Source: JACPSX01 sp035288405 [NCBI: bacterium]
Lineage (GTDB): Bacteria > JACPSX01
NCBI GenBank assembly: GCA_035288405.1
Contig: DATEAK010000053.1
Location: 1-11,991 of the forward strand
Direction: 5' to 3'
Length of the DNA: 11,991 bases
The first letter of the stretch is position 1; each line of letters starts with the position of its first letter. This document shows positions 1 through 11,962 of this stretch, in pieces. The position numbers and the translations under genes were made by a program. The notes under the pieces were generated by a model, which was not told the DNA's origin, made no database searches, and worked only from the letters and a program-made list of their open reading frames with translations.

Positions 1-1323
1 TCCCACTTCCTCAAGGGTGCGGGAAATCAACTCCCGTTCCATCTCCCGCACGGAGACCCCGGCTTCCACGGGAATCCTCAATTGCGGGCTGCCGCTCTCT
101 ACAGCAGGAACCAGGAAAGCCCCCGGTACCCCCTGATCCTCAAGGCGGATATGCTGCGGGAGAATTCCCTCCCCATTGCAAAGCAGCACGGCCCTCTCCA
201 GAACATTCTCCAGTTCGCGGACATTGCCTTTCCACGTCCATCGGCACAGTAGGTCCATCGCATCTTTTCTTAACCGAGGAATCGGCCTGGAATTTTTCGT
301 GCTTACTTTCTGTATCAAGTGGTCTGCCACCAGGGGAATATCACCCGGGCGGTCTCGGAGAGGCGGAATCATCAGGGGAACAACGTTCAGTCTGTAGTAA
401 AGGTCCTCCCGGAATCCTCCCCGGCGCACTTGGTCGAGTAGGTTGCGGTTTGTTGTGGCGATCACCCGGAGATCCACTGGGATTGGATTCCTTCCTCCAA
501 CCCGATCCACCTCATGTTCTTGCAGCACGCGAAGCAGCTTGGCCTGAAGCGGAAACGGCATCTCGCTAACCTCATCCAGCAAAAGCGTGCCGCCATCAGC
601 CAACTCGAATTTGCCGGGCTTGCGGGTCACTGCCCCCGTGAAGGCTCCCCTCTCATGGCCAAAAAGCTCACTCTCCAGAAGTCCCTCCGGCAATGCCGCA
701 CAGTTTACGGCGACCAGTAACTTCTGGCCCCGAGGACTGTGGGAGTGTATGTAGCGAGCCAGCAGCTCTTTCCCCGTTCCGCTTTCGCCTTGAATGAGGA
801 CGGTCGCATTGCTGATGGCGATGTTTCGGGCCATTTCCAAAATGCTCAGCATCTGCGCATCGGCGGTGATGATCTCGCGCTTCCCTTTGCAGAGGACTTC
901 TTGCGGACGCCGAAGAAATTCTTCACTTCCTGACATTCGCTCCTTCCGCTTGCATACCCGGCGGACTGCATCTTCTAGAATTTCCACGGAAAATGGTTTC
1001 AGGATATAGTCCGTCGCCCCTTCGCGCATTGCCTCTACGGCATTCTCGATAGTCCCGTATGCCGTGATCATAATGAAGGAGACCTGTGGATTTTGCTCCT
1101 TGGCCTTGTGGAGGACATCTAGACCGCTGACGTGAGGCATCCGAACATCGCTGATCACCACATCGAAGGTCTGTTTTTCGAGTTTGTACAAGGCTTCGAG
1201 CCCGCTGCAGGCCACCTCGACGGCGCAACCTGCCCTGCTCAGGGCCGCCGATAGTGCAAGCCTCATGTCCGCCTCATCGTCGACCACCAGTATCGAAAGG
1301 GAAGAGAGACTTTGCTTGATCAT
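1..1323 (-). CDS. Sigma-54-dependent response regulator, NtrC/FlrC type (3' end outside window)
   Basis: Two-component transcription activator that would remodel sigma-54 RNA polymerase after phosphorylation by the kinase encoded just upstream. My minus-strand translation gives 441 residues without a stop, so the C-terminal Fis-type HTH lies beyond the window. A receiver domain covers about residues 10-125, with acidic pocket D15-D16, phosphoacceptor D59, T87 and K109. The AAA+ domain follows, with Walker A GESGTGKE (179-186), the sigma-54-contacting GAFTGA loop (226-231) and Walker B DE (250-251). The last visible part contains a MERELI-type stretch that usually precedes the HTH in this family. 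The ATG at 1323 follows the kinase stop by 2 nt and has a GGAG about 5 nt upstream; a GTG two codons earlier is a less likely start. The intact GAFTGA loop indicates true sigma-54 activation. A flagellar FlrC/FlbD-like role is inference from the operon; other NtrC-type roles remain possible. Confidence 0.95.
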   Translation of the reverse strand, partial: MIKQSLSSLSILVVDDEADMRLALSAALSRAGCAVEVACSGLEALYKLEKQTFDVVISDVRMPHVSGLDVLHKAKEQNPQVSFIMITAYGTIENAVEAMREGATDYILKPFSVEILEDAVRRVCKRKERMSGSEEFLRRPQEVLCKGKREIITADAQMLSILEMARNIAISNATVLIQGESGTGKELLARYIHSHSPRGQKLLVAVNCAALPEGLLESELFGHERGAFTGAVTRKPGKFELADGGTLLLDEVSEMPFPLQAKLLRVLQEHEVDRVGGRNPIPVDLRVIATTNRNLLDQVRRGGFREDLYYRLNVVPLMIPPLRDRPGDIPLVADHLIQKVSTKNSRPIPRLRKDAMDLLCRWTWKGNVRELENVLERAVLLCNGEGILPQHIRLEDQGVPGAFLVPAVESGSPQLRIPVEAGVSVREMERELISRTLEEVG

Positions 1324-1325
1324 AA

Positions 1326-2750
1326 TCACTCCAATCCGGGATTTCCTTCCGGTCGGCCGCCGGGAAAGATCAATGTCAGTTCGGTCCCTTTGCCTGGCTG
1401 ACTGGTAACCTCCAGCCGGCCGCCATGAGCTGTAACGATGTTATGGACAATGGCCAGCCCCAGCCCCGTTCCCGAATCCTTCGTGGTGAAGAAAGGGTCG
1501 AAGATCCGGGAGATTTGGTCCTCCGGGATTCCTACTCCGGAATCACAAAATGCAATCTCGATCCGGCGGGCTGAAGGACAGACATTCGGGCCTCCCCTGC
1601 CGGAGGCAGTGCCGGGGGGAGAAAGGTACCGGGTGCATACCCGAAGGGATCCTCCGGCAGGCATTGCCTCCACGGCATTCAAGATCATGTTGAGGAATAC
1701 TTGTTTCAGAAGCTCCCGATCGCCCGGCATCGTCGGATTTTCACAACTGAACTCGGGTTTCATAGTGATATGATTTTGTTCTAGAAGGTAGCGTGCGAAC
1801 TGTAAGGTTTCGGAAACAAGATCGTTTACCGCGATGGGATCCGCTGCGGGTTTCGAGCTTCTCGTGAACAGCAATAAATTCGTCAAGATATGATTGAGAC
1901 TTCTCACTCCGGAACTGATGCGTTCCGCCAGATCTCTCTTGTCCGGATCGTGTTCCAGCTCGCGCTTGAGAAGGGTGGCAAAGAGCTCGATGCTGCCCAG
2001 CGGGTTTCGGATCTCGTGGGCCATATGGGCAGCCATCTCTCCCATTGCTAAGAGACGGCTGCGGCGCTGTCCCTCTTCCTCCAAATGCTTGAGCCGCGTT
2101 ACATCTTGAAGGAGAATCACGACTCCCGCCATCTGTTTTTCGTGGCCCTGCATGGATGTCGTGGAAACACGCAAGACGATACGGTCCCGGGCTCGCCCGT
2201 CAGGAAGCGAAAATTCTGAGTCCACCGGGAACCCGCAGCAGTCGGCAGATACGGGATCAGACCCTCCGGGGGGCAAATAGGGGCTTAAGTTCTCTCGCCA
2301 GTGAGCACCCAGCACCAAGCCCGGATCGAGGTCGGTGAGCTGCTGAGCGGCTCGGTTAAACAGTCGGACCTCTCCGGCCATGTCCAGAACGACGACACCC
2401 GTCTGGAGGCTCTCTAGAATATTGTTCAGATAATTCTTAACCTCTTCCTTCTCCTGAAGATTTCTCTCGAGTTCCTGGTTCTTTTCCTGCAACTCCAGTG
2501 TGAGGTCCTTCACGCGCTTTTGCAGCAATCCGTAAGAGCGGCGAAGTGTTTCGGTGGCGCGGGTAAAAGATTCGAACGCCGCGGCCAGCAGCTTTCCCTC
2601 GGAATTGTCCTGGGCGCCGCGCACTGGCTCCGGGAGGAGCCGGAGCCGGCGCTCAACGGATTCCTGATAAATTGGTTCGGGGCTTTCTCCGCCCTCGGGA
2701 GTTAAAGAAGAGTACTCATACAGGTGAGACTCCGCCGAAATCGGTTTCAT
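1326..2750 (-). CDS. Cytoplasmic PAS-domain sensor histidine kinase
   Basis: Autophosphorylating sensor kinase of 474 residues, presumed partner of the response regulator immediately downstream. No membrane segment or signal peptide is visible, so it should be soluble. The N-terminal ~60 residues are polar. A charged, coiled-coil-like stretch (about 60-112) leads into a PAS domain (about 110-220, starting near ILESLQTGVVVLD). The phosphoacceptor H-box contains H245 in HEIRNPLGSIELF. The ATPase domain has the N-box (N354, N358), the G1 box DSGVGI (from D403), DPFFTTK (F-box) and the GTGLGLAI G2 box (427-434). A short Gly/Pro-rich insert lies between the N-box and G1 (about 376-395). The start is the ATG that overlaps the TPR gene's TGA as ATGA; it has AAGGAGGGG upstream, and a longer reading would run through the TPR gene. 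A soluble PAS kinase before a sigma-54 regulator resembles flagellar FlrB/FleS-type kinases, but the input signal is unknown. Confidence 0.95.
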   Translation of the reverse strand: MKPISAESHLYEYSSLTPEGGESPEPIYQESVERRLRLLPEPVRGAQDNSEGKLLAAAFESFTRATETLRRSYGLLQKRVKDLTLELQEKNQELERNLQEKEEVKNYLNNILESLQTGVVVLDMAGEVRLFNRAAQQLTDLDPGLVLGAHWRENLSPYLPPGGSDPVSADCCGFPVDSEFSLPDGRARDRIVLRVSTTSMQGHEKQMAGVVILLQDVTRLKHLEEEGQRRSRLLAMGEMAAHMAHEIRNPLGSIELFATLLKRELEHDPDKRDLAERISSGVRSLNHILTNLLLFTRSSKPAADPIAVNDLVSETLQFARYLLEQNHITMKPEFSCENPTMPGDRELLKQVFLNMILNAVEAMPAGGSLRVCTRYLSPPGTASGRGGPNVCPSARRIEIAFCDSGVGIPEDQISRIFDPFFTTKDSGTGLGLAIVHNIVTAHGGRLEVTSQPGKGTELTLIFPGGRPEGNPGLE

Positions 2751-4861
2751 GGCGCTGTCCCCTCCTTGGAGCTCTCCAGGAAAGGTGGAGCTTTCGCCCG
2801 CAGCTTGGTCTGCCAGTCCATATCTGCGAGAAAATTCGTCGCCACTTCTGACAGGAAAGCGTCCGACTTGGTGGAGCTCAGGGCCTTGAAAATCTCCCGT
2901 GCCTTCTCCGGCACCCCGAGCTTTTGATAACTCAGCCCCATCTGCAGTGAAGCCCACGCAGATTGGGGGGAGTTGGGAAAGAGCTTTTGTGCTTTGCCGT
3001 ATGCCTCCAGCGCCTCCTTGGTTTTGCCCATCTGGAAAAGGCTGTCTCCCAGGAGGAAGTAGCTTGCGGCAATGTGGGTATCATCCGTGCCGACCTCCGG
3101 AATGTAAGACTGGATGGCGCGCGCGAAAAAGCCGGCGGCCGCCTCGAATTTCCCACGCGCCCAGGAGAGACGGCCCTCGTTGTACAAGGCGAGAGAGGCA
3201 CCCGAAAATTTCGGGTTCGCCTGCAGTGCCTGTTCAAAGAAGCGCGCCGCACGGTCCGGTTCGTTCTGAGCCATGGCGATTTCCCCGAGGCGCAGCAGCC
3301 CCATAGGTCGATAGGAGGATCCAGGGTAATCCTTTTGCAGAGCGGAAAAGATTTCAGCGGCTCCGGACCGGTCACCTCCGGCCCAACGAGTCTCTCCCAA
3401 CAAAAATAGGAGACGGTCCCGGGGGATGTTCTGCTTTTTTCTTCCCAAAAGATCGCGGTACACCTCCGTGGCAGGGCCGGAAAGACCCAGTGCCGCAAGG
3501 CTCTCCCCCACTTGCAGGAGGGTCTCCTGGCTGGCAGCCTCGTTCAAGACATCGCGCCGCATTTTCTCGTACAAGTCGACCACGGCGATGTGGCGCCCCA
3601 ATCCGGCATAAAAGGCGATCTGGTCTTGGACGGTTTGTCGAACCAGATCTGCGGCTTGAGCCGCCAGCACGCCATAAGGATACTGGGTCTGATGAATCTT
3701 CAAGGTTTCGAGAGCCTCGCGAAATTGCTTACTGTCCTTCTGACGGGTGGCCAAACGGATCAAGGCAACCTCGCTCAATACGGGAGTGGTTTGAGCCCGC
3801 GCTATTTCACGGTAAACTTCCGTGGGATCCTGGCGAAATTTCGACGAAACCCATTGGATCGGGTTCAAGACGGCTTTCGCCTGCGTCGAGTTTTCTCCTT
3901 CCATGTCGGCCAGGCGGATCCGGCTGATGTATCCTCCCTCTTCATAGGGGTACCGTGTAGCGGCCTCCTGGTAGATCTGCCGGCCTTCCCGGTTCTGACC
4001 TGTTCGTCGATAGGAATCCCCGATTCGGGCCAGTCCTCGCGTGCTGAGCGGATCTACCGGGTAAAGGTTCACAAGATCGAAAAACTTCCGCCGCGCTTCA
4101 GGATATTTTCCGCGTTGGTAGAATGTTTCGCCCATGGCAAACAGGGTCGCTGCGGAGGAGATCCCCCCACGGGGATACGAAGCCAGCGCTTTCCTGTAAA
4201 AGGCCTCGGCTCTTTCGAATTGGCCAAGACGATAAAATGTGTTTCCAACTCCATAGCTGGCCTCAATCCCGGGCGCCGAGTTCTTAAACTGAGCACTGAT
4301 CCGCTCGTAGATCACCTGGGCTTCCGCAAACCTCTCCAGGGCAAAATAGGTTTCTGCGAGTCCCAGCATTGCGTAGGGGAGATAACGGCTCTTCGGAAAT
4401 GTCTCAATAAAAGTCTGGTAGATCGCCTCGGCTTCATAATAGTATCCCATGCCGCTGTAGCTGCGCCCGATCTGTAATTGAAACCACGGAGCGATGGGAG
4501 ACCGCGGATAGCGCTGGAGCAATTCCCGGTACTCGTCGATTACCTGGACAAACTGTCTTTTACCCGCCTGCGTGGCCATGTAAAAAAGGCTATCGCCACG
4601 CAGGACTTCGGCGCTCTCTCTGAGTCGACTATTCGGAAATTCTTTGAGGAGACGGGTGAGCTGGTTTCGCGCCAGATCGTAATTGCGATTCTGGAACAAT
4701 TTCAGAGCCACAAAGTAAACTTCTTGATCGGTATTGTCCGCTTCTGTCCCTGCCGGGTTTTGACTTGCCGACTTCCCGGCGGGTTCTCCTCGGACTTCGC
4801 TGAGGATCCCGGCAACCCCGATCACGACAATAAGCAAAAGGATTCCGTTTCTGAAATGCAT
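2747..4861 (-). CDS. Exported tetratricopeptide-repeat protein
   Basis: Protein of 704 residues that I cannot assign to a named family. An N-terminal hydrophobic segment (about 7-20, ILLLIVVIGVAGIL) after an Arg looks like a signal peptide, with possible cleavage near residue 25 (VRG|EP). No lipobox Cys is seen. The rest is almost entirely helical TPR-like repeats: residues 47-320 hold about seven units with typical Tyr/Pro ends (FPNS, YPRS, FPKS, YPRG), and 480-665 hold a second block. A less regular middle region covers about 320-480. The spacing resembles YbgF/BamD-like envelope TPR scaffolds. The ATG at 4861 is chosen because the signal peptide begins there and an upstream sigma-54 promoter lies inside the longer open frame. 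AAAGAGGAG sits 12 nt upstream, somewhat far. It is the first gene of an operon with the kinase and response regulator, so it may supply or scaffold the sensed signal (inference). Confidence 0.88.
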   Translation of the reverse strand: MHFRNGILLLIVVIGVAGILSEVRGEPAGKSASQNPAGTEADNTDQEVYFVALKLFQNRNYDLARNQLTRLLKEFPNSRLRESAEVLRGDSLFYMATQAGKRQFVQVIDEYRELLQRYPRSPIAPWFQLQIGRSYSGMGYYYEAEAIYQTFIETFPKSRYLPYAMLGLAETYFALERFAEAQVIYERISAQFKNSAPGIEASYGVGNTFYRLGQFERAEAFYRKALASYPRGGISSAATLFAMGETFYQRGKYPEARRKFFDLVNLYPVDPLSTRGLARIGDSYRRTGQNREGRQIYQEAATRYPYEEGGYISRIRLADMEGENSTQAKAVLNPIQWVSSKFRQDPTEVYREIARAQTTPVLSEVALIRLATRQKDSKQFREALETLKIHQTQYPYGVLAAQAADLVRQTVQDQIAFYAGLGRHIAVVDLYEKMRRDVLNEAASQETLLQVGESLAALGLSGPATEVYRDLLGRKKQNIPRDRLLFLLGETRWAGGDRSGAAEIFSALQKDYPGSSYRPMGLLRLGEIAMAQNEPDRAARFFEQALQANPKFSGASLALYNEGRLSWARGKFEAAAGFFARAIQSYIPEVGTDDTHIAASYFLLGDSLFQMGKTKEALEAYGKAQKLFPNSPQSAWASLQMGLSYQKLGVPEKAREIFKALSSTKSDAFLSEVATNFLADMDWQTKLRAKAPPFLESSKEGTAP

Positions 4862-4902
4862 CTCGCGATGGTACTCCTCTTTGGAACTTACCAGAAGAGA
4901 CG

Positions 4903-4918
4903 AGCAAGATTCGTACCA
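4903..4918 (-). promoter_or_regulatory. Sigma-54 (-24/-12) promoter of the TPR-kinase-regulator operon
   Basis: The minus strand reads TGGTACGAATCTTGCT. This has the invariant GG-N10-GC spacing and differs from the usual TGGCACG-N4-TTGC consensus at one position. GG lies at 4917-4916 and GC at 4905-4904, so transcription should start near 4892. That is about 10 nt before the AAAGAGGAG ribosome-binding sequence and about 31 nt before the ATG at 4861. The placement between two sigma-54 activator genes supports it. It has not been tested experimentally. Confidence 0.75.
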
Positions 4919-5044
4919 GTAGGTGAGCCGGATTGGGAATTCGGAAAGACCGCAGGAACCCTGTAGGTAGTCCACTTTCCTGCAGATCAGAACCACCTTC
5001 AGGAGTTAGAGAGGAACTTCTTCTGTCAAATTCAGCGGATTACA

Positions 5045-5060
5045 TGTCAGGATTTTGACA
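5045..5060. promoter_or_regulatory. Candidate enhancer-binding dyad upstream of the sigma-54 promoter
   Basis: The sequence TGTCAGGATTTTGACA is a dyad of TGTCA and TGACA arms around 6 nt. It overlaps the stop codon of regulator 1 and is centred about 134 bp upstream of the -24 element, a normal distance for sigma-54 enhancer sites. A further TGTCAAA half-site lies at 5024-5030. GTCA-N6-TGAC has the same arms and spacing as the FleQ-box consensus I recall from Pseudomonas. The 5-bp arms are short, so chance is a real alternative. Confidence 0.4.
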
Positions 5061-6510
5061 ATGGTTGTGCGAGTTGCTTCTTTTTTAGTTTTTCCACCAG
5101 AGTGGTGCGGTTCATCCCCAGTAAACGAGCGGCTTTATTTTTCACCCAGTCTGCTTTTTCCAAGGCTCTGAGGATCAATTGGTTTTCGAAGCGATCGACA
5201 ACTTCCTTGAGCGAAATCCCTTGATCAGGAATATCGAACTGCAAGAAGTTTCCATCCGAACGGGCACCAAAGAACTTCTTCGGCAAGTCTTCAATCTCGA
5301 TGGTGCCCGCTTCTTTGAGGATGACAATGCGCTCGATGAGATTTTCCAGTTCCCGCACATTGCCAGGCCACTCGTAGTTCGATAAATGCTTTAAAGCCTC
5401 ATCGCTAACACCGAGCATATGCTTGCTTTTCTCCCTATTAAAGTGCTCCAAGAAGTGGTTGACAAGCAGGGGAATATCACCCTGTCGGTGACGCAACGGT
5501 GGCAGAGAAATGGGGATCACGTTCAGACGGTAATATAGGTCTTCCCGAAATGTGCGGTTGGAGACAGCCTGCTCCAAATCCTGGTTGGTGGCCGCGATGA
5601 TCCGCACATCGACCTTAATTGTTTTTGTACCTCCAATCCTTTCGAACTCCTGCTCTTGCAAAACCCTTAGGACCTTTACCTGCAGGGCGGGACTCATGTC
5701 CCCGATTTCATCGAGGAAAATGCTACCCTGATGGGCCAGCTCGAATCGACCAATCCGGGTCGCCGAGGCACCCGTAAAAGCCCCCTTCTCATGTCCAAAA
5801 AGCTCGCTTTCCAGCAAGGTTTCGGGGATGGCACCACAATTCACAGGGATGAGGGGGCGATCTTTACGATGGCTGTTGAAGTGAAGCGCTCGTGCCACGA
5901 GTTCCTTGCCGGTTCCACTTTCTCCGCTGATGAGCACGGTGCTGTCACTGTCAGCCACCTTCTCAATCAGTTGGAAAACCTGCTGCATTTCCGGGCTATC
6001 GCCCACGATATTTTCGAATCGATATTTTCTCTGAAGCTGGCGTCTTAAGGCCAGGTTTTCAATGAATAATTTCTGATCTTCATAGCGGCGAAAATGGGTG
6101 CGCCTCTCTGAGCCTGGGAAAGGACTACCGCTTCCCCTCCAACGCTTTTCCTCTAGTGCCCGCAAGATCAACTTCTTGAGTTCCTGAAGGTGGAACGGCT
6201 TCGTAACAAAATCGTAGGCGCCAGCTCCCATGACTTCTGCCGCAGTTTGTGTACTTCCAAACCCTGTCATCGCGATGGCGAGAGTTCTCCTGCCGAGTTG
6301 CCCCATTTCTTTGAGAACTTCAAAACCGTCCACCCGAGGCATTTTTAGATCGACCAACATGAGCTCGAATTCCCTTTCTCGCAAAAGGTCGATAGCCCTC
6401 TGGCCACCACCGGCCACGCTCACGACAAATCCTTGCCGAGAAAGGAACTCCTTTAGGAGATCCCGGGTCTCCTTTTCGTCATCGACAACAAGGATTTCAG
6501 TTCTTTCCAT
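5047..6510 (-). CDS. Sigma-54-dependent response regulator, NtrC family (complete)
   Basis: Activator of 487 residues (from the ATG at 6510) with receiver, AAA+ and Fis-type HTH domains. Key residues in that numbering: phosphoacceptor D54, T82 and K104; Walker A GESGTGKE (196-203); GAFTGA loop (243-248); Walker B DE (267-268); and a C-terminal HTH around 456-477 ([20 protein letters not shown]). The longer reading from 6549 adds 13 residues, but its ATG lies inside the predicted -10 element. The 6510 start also puts the phosphoacceptor at residue 54, as in NtrC. The Shine-Dalgarno for 6510 is weak (AGGA, 12 nt away). The RTTLVEKL recognition region resembles FleQ/FlrA activators, although FleQ itself lacks a normal phosphoacceptor while this protein keeps one. 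No kinase gene is directly paired with it. It probably activates the sigma-54 promoter just downstream (inference). Confidence 0.93.
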
Positions 6511-6548
6511 GGGCGGGCCCAATCCTGGTTGGTTATTTGGCGTGTCCA

Positions 6549-6577
6549 TGTATACAGCATTTTCAAGGGGATGTCAA
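6549..6577 (-). promoter_or_regulatory. Sigma-70-type promoter of the response regulator gene
   Basis: The minus strand has a perfect -35 TTGACA (6577-6572), a 17-nt spacer and a -10 TATACA (6554-6549, 4 of 6 matches). The predicted transcript start is near 6542. That is downstream of the first in-frame ATG (6549-6547), which shares the last base of the -10 hexamer, so translation should begin at the ATG at 6510. Confidence 0.6.
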
Positions 6578-6606
6578 AGTGAAAACTGGAATTGTCCCTT
6601 GACATC
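6570..6606. repeat. 8-bp inverted repeat spanning two divergent -35 elements
   Basis: GATGTCAA at 6570-6577 and TTGACATC at 6599-6606 are exact inverted copies separated by 21 bp. Each arm contains the TTGACA -35 element of one of two divergent promoters. The symmetry may simply reflect two good -35 elements. The matching flanking TC on each side also allows a shared operator. Confidence 0.7.
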
Positions 6607-6627
6607 ATTACCCTATTATGCTAAAAA
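6599..6627 (+). promoter_or_regulatory. Sigma-70-type promoter of the rplU operon
   Basis: There is a perfect -35 TTGACA at 6599-6604, a 17-nt spacer ending in TGC (extended -10), and TAAAAA at 6622-6627 (4 of 6 matches; the last T is missing). Transcription would start near 6634 and leave a leader of about 68 nt before rplU. The leader holds only a weak 4-bp hairpin (CCGA at 6651-6654 with TCGG at 6663-6666), so no leader RNA is called. Confidence 0.5.
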
Positions 6628-6701
6628 TTCTTGTTCGTTGACTGATTAGACCGACGAATCCATCGGCTTGTTAAAGTGAAAACGAGTGAGGTAACGCACT
6701 G

Positions 6702-7028
6702 ATGTATGCAATCGTTGGAACAGGGGGCAAACAAATCCAGGTATCTCCAGGCGAGATTGTTCGAGTGGAAACCTTGCCCGGAAAAGTTGGAGAAACCATT
6801 GAGATTCCGGAAGTTCTTCTTCTCAATCGGGATGGGAACGTCGAAGCGGGAACACCGACTCTACCAGGTGTGCGGGTAACAGCGCAAATTTTGTCCCACG
6901 GGCGTAGTAAGAAAGTCATCGTTTTTAAGCACAAGCGCCGGAAAAACTACCGCCGCAGGAATGGCCACCGTCAGGGATTTACAGAGATCAAAATCACGGA
7001 TATCCTCGCCGGTTCAGGGAGTAACTAA
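6702..7028 (+). CDS. rplU: 50S ribosomal protein L21
   Basis: Large-subunit ribosomal protein of 108 residues that binds 23S rRNA. It begins [14 protein letters not shown], typical of L21, and carries the conserved basic stretch near residues 78-90 ([16 protein letters not shown]) followed by the FTEIKI ending. Its length fits the family (about 100-105 residues). The ATG at 6702 has GAGG about 10 nt upstream. It is first in the plus-strand operon, behind a predicted sigma-70 promoter, and is followed by rpmA after 4 nt, the usual L21-L27 pair. Confidence 0.99.
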
Positions 7029-7032
7029 AACA

Positions 7033-7287
7033 ATGGCTCACAAGAAGGGACAGGGGAGTACAACAAACGGCCGAGACAGTATCGGTAAGAGGCTCGGAGT
7101 CAAGGCAGGGTGCGGGCAACGGGTCAGCGCAGGCAGCATTCTGGTCCGCCAGCGGGGCACCCACTTTCATCCCGGCATCAACGTGGGCTTAGGAAACGAT
7201 TACACCCTTTTTGCGACCGTCGATGGGGTCGTGCAATTTGAAACCAAACCCGGTGGCCGTAAAATCGTCAGCATCTTGACTACCTAA
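7033..7287 (+). CDS. rpmA: 50S ribosomal protein L27
   Basis: Large-subunit ribosomal protein of 84 residues whose N-terminus reaches toward the peptidyl-transferase centre. The [10 protein letters not shown] start, the [12 protein letters not shown] stretch and the [10 protein letters not shown] motif are diagnostic of L27. The ATG at 7033 is chosen because L27 proteins begin MAHKK; an in-frame ATG 24 codons upstream falls inside rplU and would add unrelated residues. A GGAG lies about 11 nt upstream, overlapping the end of rplU. There is no cleavable N-terminal extension of the Firmicutes type. Confidence 0.99.
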
Positions 7288-7398
7288 GACCGATTGATGA
7301 GGGAAGCAATGTTTTTATTCACTCGCCGCCTTTGCTCCCCTCCTGCCGCTTTTCCTCTCTCCTCTGGGCCGCAATAAGAATTCTCGAAGGGGTATTCC
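7288..7398 (+). other. C-rich, G-poor gap between rpmA and obgE
   Basis: This is the longest gap inside the housekeeping operon. Positions 7321-7370 contain 25 C, 16 T, 8 G and 1 A by my count. Such C-rich, G-poor sequence resembles Rho-loading (rut) sites. No hairpin with a T-run, no convincing promoter and no credible gene was found here. A 26-codon reading frame at 7297 shows no similarity I recognise. Confidence 0.4.
7387..7392 (+). promoter_or_regulatory. Ribosome-binding site fixing the obgE TTG start
   Basis: AAGGGG ends 6 nt before the TTG at 7399. An in-frame TAA at 7375-7377 rules out any longer reading, and no ATG or GTG lies between that stop and the conserved Obg N-terminus. The TTG is therefore the only sensible start. 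Confidence 0.8.
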
Positions 7399-8424
7399 TT
7401 GCTTGTTGATCAAGCCAAGATTTTCCTCAGGGCTGGAAAAGGGGGAGGTGGTTGCCTCAGTTTTCATAGGGAAAAGTACGTGCCGCGGGGCGGGCCCGAT
7501 GGAGGCGACGGAGGACGGGGAGGTCATATCTTCCTGCGCACAAATCCGAACCTTCACACGTTGGCAGATTTCGCCTATCGCAAGATCTATCAATCCCCAC
7601 CAGGTGGCCCTGGAGAAGGGGGAAACCGCCATGGCCATCACGGGGAAGATATAATCCTTAGCGTTCCCGTCGGAACTGAAGTCATCGATGCGCAAACCGG
7701 AGAGCTTCTAGCCGACCTGTCCCGGGAAGGAATGGAATTTCTCGCAGCCCGTGGTGGACAAGGTGGCAAGGGAAATGCCCGGTTCAAGTCTTCAACGAAC
7801 CGTACCCCGCGGCAACGGGAACTCGGAGAGGCGGGCCAGGAGCAATCGTTGGTTTTAGAACTCAAAGTTCTGGCGGATGTAGGGCTTTTGGGGTTCCCGA
7901 ACGCAGGTAAATCGACCTTCATTTCCAGGATTTCGGCAGCCCGGCCCAAAGTGGCTTCTTACGCCTTTACGACCCTGGAACCCGCCCTGGGAGTTTGGGA
8001 ACTTCCTGGAGGTCCCATCGTGGTGGCCGACGTTCCCGGAATCATTGAGGGAGCTCATCAGGGAAAGGGGCTGGGACTCCGCTTCTTGAAGCATCTCGAA
8101 CGGACGGGAATCCTCCTCTATCTGATCGATTTCAGTGTTCCATCCTCCGAGATTCCTCCCTGGGATCAATATACAGCTCTGCGGTCTGAAGTCGTTGCCT
8201 ACGGGAAGGGACTGGCGGATAAGCCCTATCTGGTCATAGCCACCAAAATGGACTTGCCGACTGCCGTAGAAAACTGGTGCTCCCAGGCGGATCTTTTCCG
8301 GGAAAAGGAAATCTTCCCGATCCCCATCTCGGCACTCGCCGGGAGCGGAATCGAGGATCTCGCACGGGACGTTGATGCGCTTCTACCGCACAAGGGAAGA
8401 AAGCTAAATGTCTGTGTCGGATAA
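7399..8424 (+). CDS. obgE: Obg/CgtA family ribosome-assembly GTPase
   Basis: GTPase of 341 residues that binds the 50S subunit and takes part in late ribosome assembly and stress control. The Gly-rich Obg fold covers about 1-157, with REKYVPRGGPDGGDGGRGG near 24-42 and repeated GG motifs. The G domain follows: G1 GFPNAGKS (165-172), G2 TT (191-192), G3 DVPG (211-214), G4 TKMD (282-285, Thr in place of the common Asn) and G5 SAL (311-313). It ends soon after the G domain, so it lacks the C-terminal extensions found in some homologues. Translation begins at a TTG with a good AAGGGG; no ATG or GTG alternative exists. Its last 17 nt overlap proB. The rplU-rpmA-obg order is very common in bacteria. 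Confidence 0.98.
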   Translation: MLVDQAKIFLRAGKGGGGCLSFHREKYVPRGGPDGGDGGRGGHIFLRTNPNLHTLADFAYRKIYQSPPGGPGEGGNRHGHHGEDIILSVPVGTEVIDAQTGELLADLSREGMEFLAARGGQGGKGNARFKSSTNRTPRQRELGEAGQEQSLVLELKVLADVGLLGFPNAGKSTFISRISAARPKVASYAFTTLEPALGVWELPGGPIVVADVPGIIEGAHQGKGLGLRFLKHLERTGILLYLIDFSVPSSEIPPWDQYTALRSEVVAYGKGLADKPYLVIATKMDLPTAVENWCSQADLFREKEIFPIPISALAGSGIEDLARDVDALLPHKGRKLNVCVG

Positions 8425-9577
8425 CACAAGAGCAAACGATGGGCAGCTGCGAGAGCGCCTTCGTACCCGCAATATCAAGCGGATCGTTATTAAAATCGGC
8501 AGCAGTGTTCTTGCCCTACCTCAATGCGGGCTCAATACCGCTACGATCGAATCCATCTCCTCCCAGATTGCCTCCCTCCGCAGTCAAGGACTGGAAATCC
8601 TCCTGGTCTCTTCAGGCGCCATTGCTTCCGGAGTCCTCAAGCTCGGTCTCAAAGAGCCCCCCCGCACTTTGCCGCTCAAGCAAGCTGTGGCCGCCGCGGG
8701 GCAAAGCCATCTCATCCGAACCTATGAAAAATTCTTCGAGGTGTACAGCACTCATGTAGCCCAGATTCTTTTGACCCACGAGGATCTGCGGGACCGCAAA
8801 CGTTATCTGAATGCCCGCACCACGTTGCTCACGCTCCTTCAGCTCGGTGCCCTCCCGATCATTAATGAAAACGATACGGTCGCTGTGGATGAGATTCGAT
8901 TTGGCGACAACGATACTCTATCCGCCCAGGTCGCAAGCTTGATGGATGCCGATCTTTTACTTATCCTGACCGATACCGATGGACTCTATGATAAAGATCC
9001 CGGAGCTGGAGGGAATCCTCATCTCATTCCCTCAGTTGCCGAGGTTACTGTCGAGGTCGAGAAACTGGCGGGAGCACGTCCGGGCGCCCTGGGAACCGGG
9101 GGGATGCTCACAAAAATCCGAGCCGCGAAGGCCATGAGCCAGGCGGGTGGCTTCACGGTAATCGCCAACGGGAGGGAAGAAGCAATCATCACGCGCATCC
9201 TTTCCGGTGAAGTTCTCGGTACTCTTTTCCTTCCCACCGAGAAACCATTGCGCAGCCGGAAACACTGGATCCTTCACACTCTGCGGCCTCGAGGGGAGAT
9301 CACGGTCGACGACGGGGCCAAGGAAGCTCTGGTTCGCTACGGGAAAAGCCTCCTCCCTTCCGGTATCCTCGATGTGCGAGGAAACTTTGCATTCGGGGAT
9401 GCCGTCAGTTGCCTCGGACAGGACCTGCGCGAATTCGCCCGGGGTCTGGTCAACTACAGCGCCCGGGATCTCGTGAAGATCAAAGGGGCTCGCACAGACA
9501 CTATTGAATCCATTCTGGGGCGCAAAGACTATGATGAAGTCATCCACCGGGACGATTTGGTCCTCCTGGAGGTTTAA
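8408..9577 (+). CDS. proB: Glutamate 5-kinase with C-terminal PUA domain
   Basis: Catalyses ATP-dependent phosphorylation of L-glutamate to gamma-glutamyl phosphate, the first step of proline synthesis, in the cytoplasm. At 389 residues it has the usual two-domain form. The amino-acid kinase domain (about 24-280) shows VIKIGSSVL, LVSSGAIASG, INENDTVAVDEIRFGDND, LTDTDGLYDKDP and GTGGMLTKIRAA. A PUA domain follows (about 295-385). The ATG at 8408 lies inside the end of obgE (17-nt overlap) and is preceded by AAGGGA/GGAAG-type sequence. proA follows after 3 nt, and the product is the substrate of ProA; the unstable intermediate is a known reason for their pairing. Proline feedback control is usual for the family but cannot be read from this sequence. 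Confidence 0.98.
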   Translation: MSVSDNTRANDGQLRERLRTRNIKRIVIKIGSSVLALPQCGLNTATIESISSQIASLRSQGLEILLVSSGAIASGVLKLGLKEPPRTLPLKQAVAAAGQSHLIRTYEKFFEVYSTHVAQILLTHEDLRDRKRYLNARTTLLTLLQLGALPIINENDTVAVDEIRFGDNDTLSAQVASLMDADLLLILTDTDGLYDKDPGAGGNPHLIPSVAEVTVEVEKLAGARPGALGTGGMLTKIRAAKAMSQAGGFTVIANGREEAIITRILSGEVLGTLFLPTEKPLRSRKHWILHTLRPRGEITVDDGAKEALVRYGKSLLPSGILDVRGNFAFGDAVSCLGQDLREFARGLVNYSARDLVKIKGARTDTIESILGRKDYDEVIHRDDLVLLEV

Positions 9578-9580
9578 CCA

Positions 9581-10846
9581 GTGGCAACGGAAACCCTGAA
9601 AAGCATGATTCTCTCCATGGGCCAAAATGCCCGAGCCGCTTCCCGTCCCCTGAGGCAGATGTCTACCACGATAAAGAACAATGCTCTGGAGTCTATGGCC
9701 GCCAGCCTTCTGGACCATGGGCAGGAGATCCTGGAGGGTAACCAGCGCGATTTGGCCGCAGCCCGAGAGAAGAACTCGAGTCCGGCGATGATAGATCGCC
9801 TCACTTTGAACGAGCAGAGGCTCCAGGCCATGGCAAGTGGAATTCTGGAAATTGCCGCTCTCCCCGATCCCGTGGGAGAAGTGCCGAGAATGTGGCGCAG
9901 GCCCAATGGCCTCTTGATCGGGAAATGTCGGGTTCCTCTGGGAGTCATCGGAGTCATTTACGAATCCCGGCCCAATGTCACTGCCGACACGGCGGCTCTC
10001 TGTCTGAAATCGGGAAATGCGGTCATTTTGCGAGGGGGTTCCGAAGCCTTCCATTCCAATCGAGTGATTACCCGGGTTTTGTCCGAAGCGGCCAGCAGCC
10101 GGGGAATTCCCGAGGGTTCTTTACAACTCGTTGAGACGACCGACCGGGAGGCCGTCTACGAACTTCTTCAAATGGACCGCTACCTCGATGTCATCATCCC
10201 CCGCGGAGGACCCGATCTAATTTCCCTGGTCAGCGAGCGTTCCCGGGTACCGGTCATCAAACACGATAAAGGGTTGTGCCATACGTATGTGGATTCCCAC
10301 GCGGACCTGGAGATGGCCCTGCGAGTCTGCACGAACGCCAAGGTTCAGCGTCCCGGTGTCTGCAATGCAATGGAGACTCTTCTGGTGCATCAGACAGTCG
10401 CTGCTTCCTTCCTCCCGCGCATCGGGGAAGCTTTAAGCCGCGCAGGCGTCGAGATCCGAGGCTGTCCTCGCACTTGCGCCCTCCTTCCCGCAGCCCGGCC
10501 GGCTCAACCGGAAGACTGGGATGCGGAATACCTGGACCTGATCTTATCTGTGAAAGTAGTCGATAGTTTGGATGAGGCCACGGCGCATATCGAGCGGCAC
10601 GGATCAGGACTGGCCGAAGCCATTATCACCTCTGATTATACAAACTCGCGGCGCTTCCTTGATGAGGTCGATGCCGCCGCCGTATTCGTAAACGCCTCTA
10701 CTCGTTTTACCGACGGCAACCAGTTCGGTCTAGGCGCCGAGATGGGAATCAGCACCCAGAAGCTCCATGTGCGCGGTCCCATGGGCCTTGAAGATCTAAC
10801 CTGTACGAAGTACATTATTCTGGGAGACGGACAGGTCCGGGAGTAG
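9581..10846 (+). CDS. proA: Gamma-glutamyl phosphate reductase
   Basis: NADPH-dependent reductase of 421 residues that converts gamma-glutamyl phosphate to glutamate-5-semialdehyde, the second step of proline synthesis. It belongs to the aldehyde-dehydrogenase superfamily. Visible family motifs include GVIYESRPNVTADTAALCLKSGN (about 124-146), ILRGGSEA (149-156), the catalytic Cys C261 in VQRPGVCNAMETLL, and the late ASTRFTDGNQFGLGAEMGIST region. The start is GTG at 9581 with a strong GGAGG about 8 nt upstream, located in the 3' end of proB. The gap after proB is only 3 nt, so translational coupling is likely. No key residue appears to be missing. Confidence 0.98.
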   Translation: MATETLKSMILSMGQNARAASRPLRQMSTTIKNNALESMAASLLDHGQEILEGNQRDLAAAREKNSSPAMIDRLTLNEQRLQAMASGILEIAALPDPVGEVPRMWRRPNGLLIGKCRVPLGVIGVIYESRPNVTADTAALCLKSGNAVILRGGSEAFHSNRVITRVLSEAASSRGIPEGSLQLVETTDREAVYELLQMDRYLDVIIPRGGPDLISLVSERSRVPVIKHDKGLCHTYVDSHADLEMALRVCTNAKVQRPGVCNAMETLLVHQTVAASFLPRIGEALSRAGVEIRGCPRTCALLPAARPAQPEDWDAEYLDLILSVKVVDSLDEATAHIERHGSGLAEAIITSDYTNSRRFLDEVDAAAVFVNASTRFTDGNQFGLGAEMGISTQKLHVRGPMGLEDLTCTKYIILGDGQVRE

Positions 10847-10886
10847 TCCGGCTCGGCCGGAAATTCCCCGATTTCAAAGAGGTTTG

Positions 10887-11576
10887 ATGCGGCTCGGCAT
10901 CCTAGGAGGGACATTTAACCCGATCCACTGCGGCCATCTCCTCTGTGCGGGTCAGGTCCGGGAAAAGCTGGCTTTGGATCAGGTCATCTTTATCCCTACG
11001 GGGCAACCCCCTCATAAGGAGGGAAATCCGGTTCTTAACCCGTACCATCGTCTGGCCATGGCTTACTTGGCCACAATGCCATTTGCGGCTTTCACGGTTT
11101 CCACTCTGGAAGTGGAACGACCGGGAAAGTCTTACTCGGTCGAGACCATCACTGCGATTCGAGATTGTTTCTCTCCCGAGACCGAGTTTTTCTTTATCCT
11201 CGGCAGCGACGCCATTCTGGAAATCGGGACCTGGAAAGATACAGATAAGCTTCTCAAGAGCTGCCATTTTGCGGTTGTGAATCGCCCCGATCATGAGGTG
11301 GATGATCTCTTTCCCCATCTGCAGCACTCGGTGAAGTCCCGCTATCCCGAACTCGAGTTCCTTCCCAGCAAGCCCTCCGGAAGCGGAGGAATGATTGGGA
11401 TAAAGGGCTCGCCCTACTCCGTGCACATGATTCCAAGCTTGACACTGAGGATTTCCGCTTCAGAAATCCGCCAACGTTTACGTCAGGGCCGTAGCGTGGC
11501 GGGCTTGGTGCCGACCGCAGTGGAACGGCACATCGTCAAGTATGGACTTTACTTGAAGGAGGATTCATGGCGTTGA
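10887..11576 (+). CDS. nadD: Nicotinate-nucleotide adenylyltransferase
   Basis: Transfers AMP from ATP to nicotinate mononucleotide, giving deamido-NAD in NAD biosynthesis. The 229-residue protein shows the nucleotidyltransferase signature GGTFNPIHCGH (7-17, with HxGH at 14-17), IPTGQPPHK (36-44), SYSVET (82-87), LGSDAI (105-110), and the C-terminal ISASEIRQRL followed by VPTAVERHIVKYGLY. It is slightly longer than many NadD proteins because of a Gly/Ser-rich segment near 161-178. The ATG at 10887 is chosen because the conserved strand begins right after it and AGAGG lies 5 nt upstream; a TTG one codon earlier is possible. It sits 40 nt after proA and overlaps rsfS by 10 nt. Confidence 0.98.
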   Translation: MRLGILGGTFNPIHCGHLLCAGQVREKLALDQVIFIPTGQPPHKEGNPVLNPYHRLAMAYLATMPFAAFTVSTLEVERPGKSYSVETITAIRDCFSPETEFFFILGSDAILEIGTWKDTDKLLKSCHFAVVNRPDHEVDDLFPHLQHSVKSRYPELEFLPSKPSGSGGMIGIKGSPYSVHMIPSLTLRISASEIRQRLRQGRSVAGLVPTAVERHIVKYGLYLKEDSWR

Positions 11577-11962
11577 GCGCAGAAGAGAGAATCAAGGTTT
11601 GCGGTCGAGTTGCAGGAGAAAAGAAAGCCACGGATTCCATTCTCCTGGACTTGCGCGAGCTTTCCACGATCACCGATTACTTTCTCATTTGCAGCGGTCA
11701 ATCGCAACGCCAGGTGAAGACCATCGCCGATGCAATTGATGAAGTCCTCTCCCAGAGCGGTGTCCAACCTGTGGGGCGCGAAGGCTACGAGGAGGGACGC
11801 TGGGTTTTGCTCGATTACGACGAATTTATCGTGCACATATTCCAACCCGAAGTCCGCAAGTTCTATGACCTGGAACGGCTTTGGGGAGTCACCGTGCAGC
11901 ATTGGGCTGAACCCGCCGGCACGTTTGTGGCCGCGCCCCAGCGCCGTCCGGCGAACCTATAA
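11567..11962 (+). CDS. rsfS: Ribosome silencing factor RsfS (Iojap/YbeB family)
   Basis: Small cytoplasmic factor that binds L14 on the 50S subunit and blocks joining with 30S when nutrients are scarce. The 131 residues contain the family core: A21-D23 (KATDSILLDLREL), TDYFLICSGQSQRQVKTIADAI (about 36-57), GYEEGRWVLLDYDEFIVHIF (about 73-92) and the RKFYDLERLWG ending. A short Pro/Ala-rich tail follows. The ATG at 11567 has a strong AAGGAGG and overlaps nadD by 10 nt, the usual nadD-rsfS pairing. Confidence 0.97.
   Translation: MALSAEERIKVCGRVAGEKKATDSILLDLRELSTITDYFLICSGQSQRQVKTIADAIDEVLSQSGVQPVGREGYEEGRWVLLDYDEFIVHIFQPEVRKFYDLERLWGVTVQHWAEPAGTFVAAPQRRPANL

What the first reader, a model, noticed from the sequence alone, without database searches (positions are those of the whole stretch)
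4903..4918. Near-consensus sigma-54 promoter drives an operon encoding its own sigma-54 activator
TGGTACGAATCTTGCT (minus strand) has exact GG-N10-GC geometry, one mismatch to consensus, and ideal spacing to the Shine-Dalgarno and ATG of the TPR gene. The operon it starts encodes a kinase and a GAFTGA-containing activator, and another GAFTGA activator is encoded just upstream. This predicts a layered circuit (regulator 1 to operon to regulator 2), possibly with positive autoregulation, as in class II flagellar genes.
Basis: partly seen in the sequence, partly recalled or inferred. Interest (0 to 1): 0.6.

Follow-up and report, generated by a model that had tools for sequence, protein, structure and literature searches.

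The report
FleQ-type flagellar switch, candidate phylum
A short DNA switch in front of a small operon of an uncultured bacterium is very probably a real sigma-54 promoter, switched on by the regulator encoded next to it, and most likely starts the two-step flagellum-building programme known from Vibrio and Pseudomonas.

Summary
In detail: TGGTACGAATCTTGCT at 4918-4903 (minus strand), one mismatch from TGGCACG-N4-TTGCW. Alone it is modest (0.07 expected per window). In the one close relative, L001 (Ca. Tectomicrobia MAG), 18 of 18 bases are identical in a gap otherwise 48.5% identical.

In distant genomes a sigma-54 element follows the upstream regulator's (RR1) homologues in 13 of 21 family loci (shuffle mean 0.235; 0 of 13 others), and 8 of 21 carry the repeat within one mismatch. 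FleQ falls inside the RR1 clade, FlrC inside the RR2 clade. In several relatives the order continues TPR > kinase > RR2 > flg/fli genes.

So this is most likely a FleQ>FleSR (FlrA>FlrBC) flagellar cascade. It differs by an intact phospho-acceptor on RR1, loss of FleQ's Arg144 equivalent, and a TPR gene heading the operon. Autoregulation is untested. No rpoN was found in the closest, fragmented MAG; the window's own genome is not held.

The parts
4903..4918 (-). sigma-54 -24/-12 promoter element TGGTACGAATCTTGCT
   Evidence: 1 mismatch, only such match in the window; 4919-4902 18 of 18 identical in L001, rest of gap 48.5%
5045..5060 (.). candidate enhancer (UAS): inverted repeat TGTCA-N6-TGACA, FleQ/FlrA-box type; overlaps the RR1 stop codon
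   Evidence: searches (only match up to 1 mismatch in window; 37 of 200 shuffles have one; 4 of 21 exact, 8 of 21 with at most 1 mismatch in RR1-family loci, shuffle means 0.01 and 0.22), papers PMC10723142 and PMC4641369 (passages)
5021..5029 (-). second conserved block TTGACAGAA (possible extra half-site)
   Evidence: 9-nt identical run with L001; function inferred only
4874..4880 (-). Shine-Dalgarno AGAGGAG of the TPR gene
   Evidence: read directly; 4880-4873 identical in L001
5047..6549 (-). RR1: NtrC-type response regulator, FleQ-clade AAA+ and HTH, intact phospho-acceptor site (D67, T95, K117)
2747..4861 (-). TPR-repeat protein, 704 aa, N-terminal hydrophobic segment (export signal or anchor), first gene of the operon
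1326..2750 (-). PAS-HisKA-HATPase sensor kinase, no strongly hydrophobic segment; proposed start ATG overlaps the TPR stop (ATGA). The ORF itself opens further upstream at 2957
1..1329 (-). RR2: NtrC-type response regulator with GAFTGA, FlrC-clade AAA+; cut by the window end, so its HTH is not seen

Best explanation
4918-4903 is the -24/-12 element of a sigma-54 promoter that drives a TPR-kinase-RR2 operon at the head of a flagellar gene cluster. RR1, encoded immediately upstream and probably expressed independently, binds the inverted repeat TGTCA-N6-TGACA at 5045-5060 as a dimer. By DNA looping (about 148 bp) it uses its GAFTGA AAA+ domain to open the sigma-54 polymerase. The operon then supplies a cytoplasmic PAS kinase and RR2. 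These form a FlrBC/FleSR-type pair expected to check early basal-body assembly and switch on the next sigma-54 tier (flgB rod operon and beyond). It works like FleQ>FleSR and FlrA>FlrBC, but RR1 keeps a complete phosphorylation site and lacks FleQ's Arg144, so it is probably controlled by phosphorylation rather than by c-di-GMP. Shown here: sequence, conservation, synteny in relatives, tree placement. Inferred: binding, looping, sigma-54 dependence, the signal, and flagellar genes directly downstream of the window.
For: Element and conservation. Recurrence of a sigma-54 element behind RR1-family genes: 13 of 21 with at most 2 mismatches and 8 of 21 with at most 1, shuffle means 0.235 and 0.015, 0 of 13 in other NtrC-type regulators, 0 on the antisense strand. 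Enhancer repeat: exact in 4 of 21 and with at most 1 mismatch in 8 of 21 (shuffle means 0.01, 0.22; 0 of 13 others), and of spacings 0-13 only 6 occurs exactly. The exact repeat is rare: 2 copies in G001, one of them here, and 4 in G215, two of them in its RR1-TPR gap. Synteny: RR1-TPR-HK-RR2 then flg/fli in G092 and G042; the same in G215 if its two contigs that end and begin inside a kinase are adjacent (inferred); RR1-TPR-HK-RR2 with fliG about 3 kb further in G316; TPR-HK/RR2 then fliG in G048. G215 also shares the divergent rplU-rpmA-obgE-proB-proA. A sigma-54 element with at most 1 mismatch lies downstream of RR2, towards flgB, in 3 of 5 modules, Markov mean 0.003. Tree: FleQ inside the RR1 clade (95/87), FlrC inside the RR2 clade (99/95). 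RR1 [14 protein letters not shown] against FleQ RRTTLVEKMRK. G001 carries fliI, flgE, fliM, fliO, fliQ, fliR and 16 strong sigma-54 activators. Papers, passages read: PMC10723142, PMC4641369, PMC6120874, PMC7064773, PMC3930126.
Against: No rpoN domain was found in the nearest MAG G001 (PF04552 and PF04963), nor in G215 or G364; fliG is also missing in G001. G001's contigs seen here are short, so a gap is the likelier reason, but this is not proven. The window's own genome is not held, and the window ends inside RR2, so downstream flagellar genes are not seen. There is only one close relative. 8 of 21 family loci lack an element within 400 nt; of these, G042/L067 has one further down, before its TPR gene, and G048 has only a 3-mismatch one before its TPR gene. 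The enhancer repeat within 1 mismatch is absent in 13 of 21. Exact repeats outside the modules, 10 copies, do not sit in the expected place. PMC6120874 (passage) found the proposed FleQ consensus unreliable in P. fluorescens. The family signature was chosen.
Confidence: 0.85

Rival explanations
1. The sigma-54 promoter is real, but RR2 (autoregulation) or another activator turns it on, not RR1.
For: G001 encodes 16 strong sigma-54 activators; RR2 also has GAFTGA and its HTH is outside the window, so its site is unknown. Operons that encode their own activator are often autoregulated (general knowledge).
Against: The conserved repeat is GTCA-N6-TGAC, the FleQ/FlrA form, and RR1 rather than RR2 is the FleQ-clade protein. 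In G087 the element follows an RR1-type gene and precedes flgB-flgC-like genes with no RR2 between. In G131 and G321 it follows RR1-type genes and precedes fliA- and flhG-like genes.
Confidence: 0.12
2. The operon is a sigma-54-driven cell-envelope two-component system unrelated to flagella; RR1 and RR2 are generic NtrC-type regulators.
For: The TPR protein scores over the NCBIfam cut-offs of YbgF and BamD; no flagellar gene lies inside the window; the best NCBIfam hits are AtoC, NifA, NtrC (RR1) and AtoC, NtrC, FlbD (RR2), all of these below cut-off.
Against: Orthologous modules continue into flg/fli genes. FleQ and FlrC fall inside the respective clades. G001 has a flagellar cluster.
Confidence: 0.08
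3. Chance match; transcription starts elsewhere (read-through from RR1 or a sigma-70 promoter).
For: 13 of 200 shuffles of the window give at least one equally good match.
Against: 18 of 18 conserved in a diverged gap; recurrence behind RR1-family genes; no sigma-70-like site on the minus strand of 4700-7000 (a weak scan).
Confidence: 0.04

Closest known systems
FlrA > FlrBC class II/III flagellar hierarchy of Vibrio cholerae
   Same: A sigma-54 activator turns on a sigma-54 promoter before a cytoplasmic kinase and a second sigma-54 activator (PMC7064773, PMC3930126, passages); GTCA-N6-TGGC is reported in the FlrA region before flrBC (PMC4641369, passage); FlrC falls inside the RR2 clade.
   Different: A TPR gene precedes the kinase; RR1 has an intact phospho-acceptor site; the operon sits upstream of flg/fli genes in relatives; different phylum.
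FleQ > FleSR of Pseudomonas
   Same: FleQ lies inside the RR1 clade and has a near-identical recognition helix; the FleQ box GTCAAT-N2-ATTGAC has the same GTCA-N6-TGAC frame (PMC10723142, passage).
   Different: The FleQ REC lacks the phospho-Asp (PMC6120874, passage) while RR1 has D67; the FleQ linker Arg144 aligns with Glu179; a FleQ footprint at fleSR was not reproducible (PMC6120874, passage), whereas a clear box lies here.
DVU2894 flagellar regulator of Desulfovibrio vulgaris
   Same: FlrA/FleQ-like, with predicted site yGTCA-N6-TGACr (PMC4641369, passage), the same motif.
   Different: Single-component regulator with GAFTHA, proposed to be autoregulated (same paper); RR1 is a full response regulator with GAFTGA.
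FgrM of Geobacter
   Same: A sigma-54 activator of flagellar genes, beside flgB (recalled; no text read, only a search listing).
   Different: Not compared by sequence here.

Membership tests
sigma-54 (-24/-12) promoter | GG-N10-GC with near-consensus TGGCACG-N4-TTGCW (consensus recalled) | tested here: met
sigma-54 (-24/-12) promoter | conserved in relatives at the orthologous position | tested here: met
   one close relative; distant loci, 13 of 21
sigma-54 (-24/-12) promoter | upstream enhancer site for a GAFTGA activator | tested here: met
   by sequence; binding itself not shown
sigma-54 (-24/-12) promoter | organism encodes RpoN | tested here: inconclusive
   own genome not held; no hit in the relative G001, which has 16 strong activators
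sigma-54 (-24/-12) promoter | transcript start about 12 nt after GC, RpoN-dependent | not testable with these tools
   needs RNA
FleQ/FlrA master regulator (RR1) | AAA+ domain groups with FleQ | tested here: met
   FleQ nests in the RR1 clade, 95/87; FlrA itself not in the tree
FleQ/FlrA master regulator (RR1) | FleQ-type HTH and GTCA-N6-TGAC box at the target | tested here: met
   box form from PMC10723142 (passage)
FleQ/FlrA master regulator (RR1) | pseudo-receiver without the phospho-Asp | tested here: not met
   D67, T95, K117, D23, D24 present; phospho-Asp in 18 of 21 family rows
FleQ/FlrA master regulator (RR1) | Arg144 linker residue (c-di-GMP/ATP site) | tested here: not met
   Glu179; Arg in 0 of 21 family rows
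FlrBC/FleSR pair (kinase + RR2) | cytoplasmic PAS-HisKA-HATPase kinase | tested here: met
   domains; highest 19-residue hydropathy 1.19, no membrane-like segment
FlrBC/FleSR pair (kinase + RR2) | RR2 AAA+ groups with FlrC, phospho-acceptor residues and GAFTGA present | tested here: met
   (99/95); REC residues and GAFTGA read by eye from the ORF
FlrBC/FleSR pair (kinase + RR2) | located with flagellar genes | tested here: inconclusive
   outside the window; met in orthologous modules
PflA-type periplasmic stator scaffold (TPR gene) | signal + beta-sandwich + TPR superhelix in a flagellar setting | tested here: inconclusive
   Foldseek rank 2 is the C. jejuni scaffold 9hmf_K at low TM 0.34, not among the 50 rows; no beta strands in the window model (pTM 0.40); AMIN-like N-terminus over cut-off in L064 and below cut-off in L063

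The most novel reading that the evidence does not exclude
The module is an older, cross-phylum form of the polar-flagellum switch. A phosphorylatable FleQ-clade regulator already reads the GTCA-N6-TGAC box and drives a TPR-kinase-FlrC operon, and the c-di-GMP-controlled pseudo-receivers FleQ/FlrA are a later derivative. The TPR protein at the head of the operon is a periplasmic, PflA-like stator scaffold, so a motor accessory is made together with the assembly-checkpoint kinase.
Probability: 0.3. Interest if true: 0.6.

Novelty: new variant of a known kind. Interest (0 to 1): 0.4.

Why it matters
It identifies the likely trigger of flagellum building in an uncultured lineage and shows promoter, enhancer box and both regulator clades held together in genomes whose TPR proteins are only about 19-26% identical to this one over their long alignments. 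Because RR1 keeps a working-looking phosphorylation site where FleQ has lost it, the locus makes the origin of c-di-GMP control of flagellar master regulators testable. In relatives the same gene order brackets an unassigned TPR protein that may be a motor scaffold.

Tried and rejected
Own genome: not held, so a genome-wide ranking of the site was impossible. The TPR-protein scan of genome contigs gave one relative only; the 'phylum' search around G001 held one genome, G001 itself. RpoN: PF04552 searched in 9 genomes (found in 6) and PF04963 in 59 relatives (found in 46); G001, G215 and G364 have neither. I do not read the absence as real, given the 16 activators in G001, but cannot exclude it. 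RR1 regulon by enhancer motif: of 13 exact copies in 7 genomes, 3 lie in the RR1-TPR gaps of G001 and G215; of the other 10 loci, 4 hold a sigma-54-like element with at most 2 mismatches, in each with the repeat downstream of it, so no wider regulon is claimed. C277 of G001 was first thought to be the continuation of RR2 into flgB; it encodes a different regulator and was dropped. TPR fold: moderate-confidence model from two sequences; hits are generic TPR solenoids, and the Campylobacter scaffold hit did not stand out and was not among the rows. IHF sites were not examined. Literature searches for this combination listed no description of this locus; most subscription journals are not covered. 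Rows not used: 7 of the 40 matches were not fetched, and L081 held no RR1-type gene; one search scored only the 4 best candidates of a genome.

Full report
What is there. On the minus strand the window reads RR1 (6549-5047), a 185-nt gap, TPR (ATG 4861 to 2747), a sensor kinase (proposed ATG 2750 to 1326, start codon overlapping the TPR stop as ATGA) and RR2 (from 1329 to the window end, cut). The plus strand carries rplU, rpmA, obgE, proB, proA, nadD and a ribosome-silencing-factor-like gene (the plus-strand names are recognised from the sequences, not searched). The proposed promoter TGGTACGAATCTTGCT is at 4918-4903 as stated.

Is it more than chance? By itself it is suggestive only: 1 match with at most 1 mismatch in the window against 0.07 expected; 13 of 200 shuffles had at least one. 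The relative L001 (Ca. Tectomicrobia MAG, TPR 76% identical) has the same gene order as far as its contig reaches. Its RR1-TPR gap is 48.5% identical outside the site, yet 4919-4902 is 18 of 18 identical; 7 of 20000 permutations gave a run as long. The other conserved runs of 7 or more are the Shine-Dalgarno (4880-4873) and two blocks near the RR1 stop (5059-5044, 5029-5021). Much of the first of these is coding.

The enhancer. The block at the RR1 stop is an exact inverted repeat TGTCA-N6-TGACA (5045-5060), the only such match up to 1 mismatch in the window (0.23 expected). PMC10723142 (passage) gives the FleQ box as GTCAAT and ATTGAC separated by two nucleotides, that is GTCA-N6-TGAC. PMC4641369 (passage) gives yGTCA-N6-TGACr for the FleQ/FlrA-like DVU2894 and GTCA-N6-TGGC before V. 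cholerae flrBC. PMC6120874 (passage) cautions that the FleQ consensus was unreliable in P. fluorescens.

A family-wide test. RR1 was searched in 386 relatives of G001 (the genome holding L001): 36 genomes, 40 matches at E up to 1e-120. I examined 33 of these 40 plus the window. By the HTH signature [NK]RTTL[VIL][EQ]K, chosen after a first look, 21 are RR1-family and 13 are not. Within 400 nt after the stop (230 nt in one control), on the sense strand, a GG-N10-GC element with at most 2 mismatches follows 13 of 21 family genes (8 of 21 with at most 1; shuffle means 0.235 and 0.015) and 0 of 13 others; none occurs on the antisense strand. Window and L001 are near-copies, and G042 contributes two genes, so the independent number is somewhat lower. 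The inverted repeat is exact in 4 of 21 and within 1 mismatch in 8 of 21 (shuffle means 0.01 and 0.22), 0 of 13 others; across spacings 0-13 exact pairs occur only at 6. The motif was read from window and L001, so L062, L063, L064, L068, L076 and L045 are the independent cases. In G048 the sequence before the TPR gene reads TGTCA-N6-TGACG and, downstream, TGGTATAAATCTTGCT (3 mismatches); its RR1-type gene is on another contig. Exact repeats are rare genome-wide: 2 in G001, 4 in G215, 3 in G364, 2 in G092, 2 in G048, 0 in G316 and G231.

What the operon is for. In G215 the same rplU-rpmA-obgE-proB-proA neighbourhood diverges from RR1-TPR-HK at a contig end (L063). Another contig begins in a kinase and continues RR2-flgB-flgC-fliE-fliF-fliG-fliH-fliI (L131; flgC, fliE, fliF, fliG, fliI by Pfam; flgB and fliH by position and sequence only); that the two contigs adjoin is inferred. 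G092 and G042 show RR1-TPR-kinase-RR2 followed by flg/fli genes (in G042 with an opposite-strand regulator between RR1 and TPR). G316 shows RR1-TPR-kinase-RR2 with fliG about 3 kb further on. G048 shows TPR-kinase/RR2 and fliG. G364 shows RR1-TPR-fliE-fliF without kinase or RR2. G231 shows RR1, a protein with only sub-threshold TPR matches, then flgB-, fliF- and fliG-like genes. G087 shows RR1, a flgB-like gene (just below cut-off) and flgC. Elsewhere the element precedes a fliA-like sigma factor (G131) or flhG/fleN-like ATPases (G321, G042 second copy). FliG is found in 8 of 9 module genomes, missing only in G001. G001 does carry fliI, flgE, fliM, fliO, fliQ, fliR on one contig. Sigma-54-like elements lie there just before a gene that looks like fliL and at the start of one that may be fliK (these two names are impressions). 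In the stretch after RR2, towards flgB, 3 of 5 modules have an element with at most 1 mismatch (Markov mean 0.003; G215 has a 3-mismatch one, G042 none), which fits RR2 acting on the next tier.

Who the regulators are. An AAA+ tree of 46 rows puts FleQ inside the RR1 clade (branch 95/87) and FlrC inside the RR2 clade (99/95); many branches within the clades are weak, and only six solved references were included. FleQ's recognition helix RRTTLVEKMRK matches RR1's [11 protein letters not shown]. Unlike FleQ, whose REC lacks the phospho-Asp (PMC6120874, passage), RR1 has D23, D24, D67, T95, K117. The phospho-Asp is present in 18 of 21 family rows, missing in L068, L077 and L045. FleQ's linker Arg (chain position 146, taken as the Arg144 of PMC10723142) aligns to Glu179 and is Arg in 0 of 21. 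So RR1 works like FleQ but fails two described FleQ features.

How it most likely works. RR1, presumably phosphorylated by an unknown kinase, binds 5045-5060, loops about 148 bp to sigma-54 polymerase at 4918-4903 and starts the TPR-kinase-RR2 transcript. The kinase has a PAS domain and no membrane-like segment. FlrB, FleS and FlgS are likewise cytoplasmic or predicted so; FlgS detects the MS-ring/rotor/export complex, and FlrBC and FleSR need it (PMC7064773, PMC3930126, passages). RR2 would then activate rod and hook genes. Binding, looping, signal and sigma-54 dependence are inference.

The TPR protein. It has an N-terminal hydrophobic segment and an all-helical model with a poorly modelled middle. 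It scores over the NCBIfam cut-offs for YbgF and BamD, which here probably reflects its TPR repeats. The module homologues are distant (E 2e-79 for L063 down to 6e-5 for L068, none for L071). L064 (and weakly L063) starts with an AMIN-like domain. In G139 the gene after the element is also a TPR protein (L076), near genes that look like motA/motB (sequence impression). The C. jejuni motor scaffold is a low-scoring Foldseek match among many TPR proteins. PMC12222027 (passages) describes PflA as beta-sandwich plus TPR superhelix and possibly widespread. This is a lead, not a result.

Weak points. No rpoN was found in G001, G215 or G364. The window's genome is not held. There is only one close relative. 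8 of 21 family loci lack a nearby element, and 13 of 21 lack the repeat within 1 mismatch. The 10 exact repeats outside the modules are not in the expected arrangement.

Novelty. The circuit type is known. New, as far as the searches named in Tried and rejected show, are its presence with promoter and box in this candidate phylum, the TPR gene at its head, and the phosphorylatable FleQ-clade regulator.

Noticed in passing
G001, G215, G364 (whole genomes): No Sigma54_DBD or Sigma54_CBD match although all three carry the sigma-54-type element behind RR1 (G001 has 16 strong activators). Probably assembly gaps, but G364 has a contig of over 400 kb.
   Followed up: partly
L135, L137, L139, L144 (around position 1501): In four of the ten exact TGTCA-N6-TGACA copies outside the modules, a sigma-54-like element with at most 2 mismatches lies within about 45-160 nt, each time with the repeat downstream of the element; in L137 a flgF-like gene follows. 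Too few to judge.
   Followed up: partly
L068:3638-5032: This RR1 homologue has lost the phospho-Asp and Lys (G, E) while keeping TPR-kinase-RR2 and a perfect sigma-54 element: an apparent pseudo-receiver, as in FleQ.
   Followed up: partly
L067:5032-5763: A response-regulator gene on the opposite strand sits between RR1 and the TPR gene, with the sigma-54 element just before the TPR gene.
   Followed up: partly
L076:1-6843: Kinase fragment, genes resembling motA and motB, then RR1, exact enhancer repeat, 2-mismatch element and a TPR protein on one small contig.
   Followed up: partly
L128:8001-8093 (G001 C277): Flg_bb_rod match in a 120-aa frame downstream of another NtrC-type regulator, on a contig apart from the main flagellar one.
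   Followed up: no
window 6702-11962: Divergent rplU-rpmA-obgE-proB-proA-nadD and silencing-factor-like block; its first part is shared with L001 and the distant G215, so the linkage of this housekeeping block to the flagellar switch is old or recurrent.
   Followed up: partly
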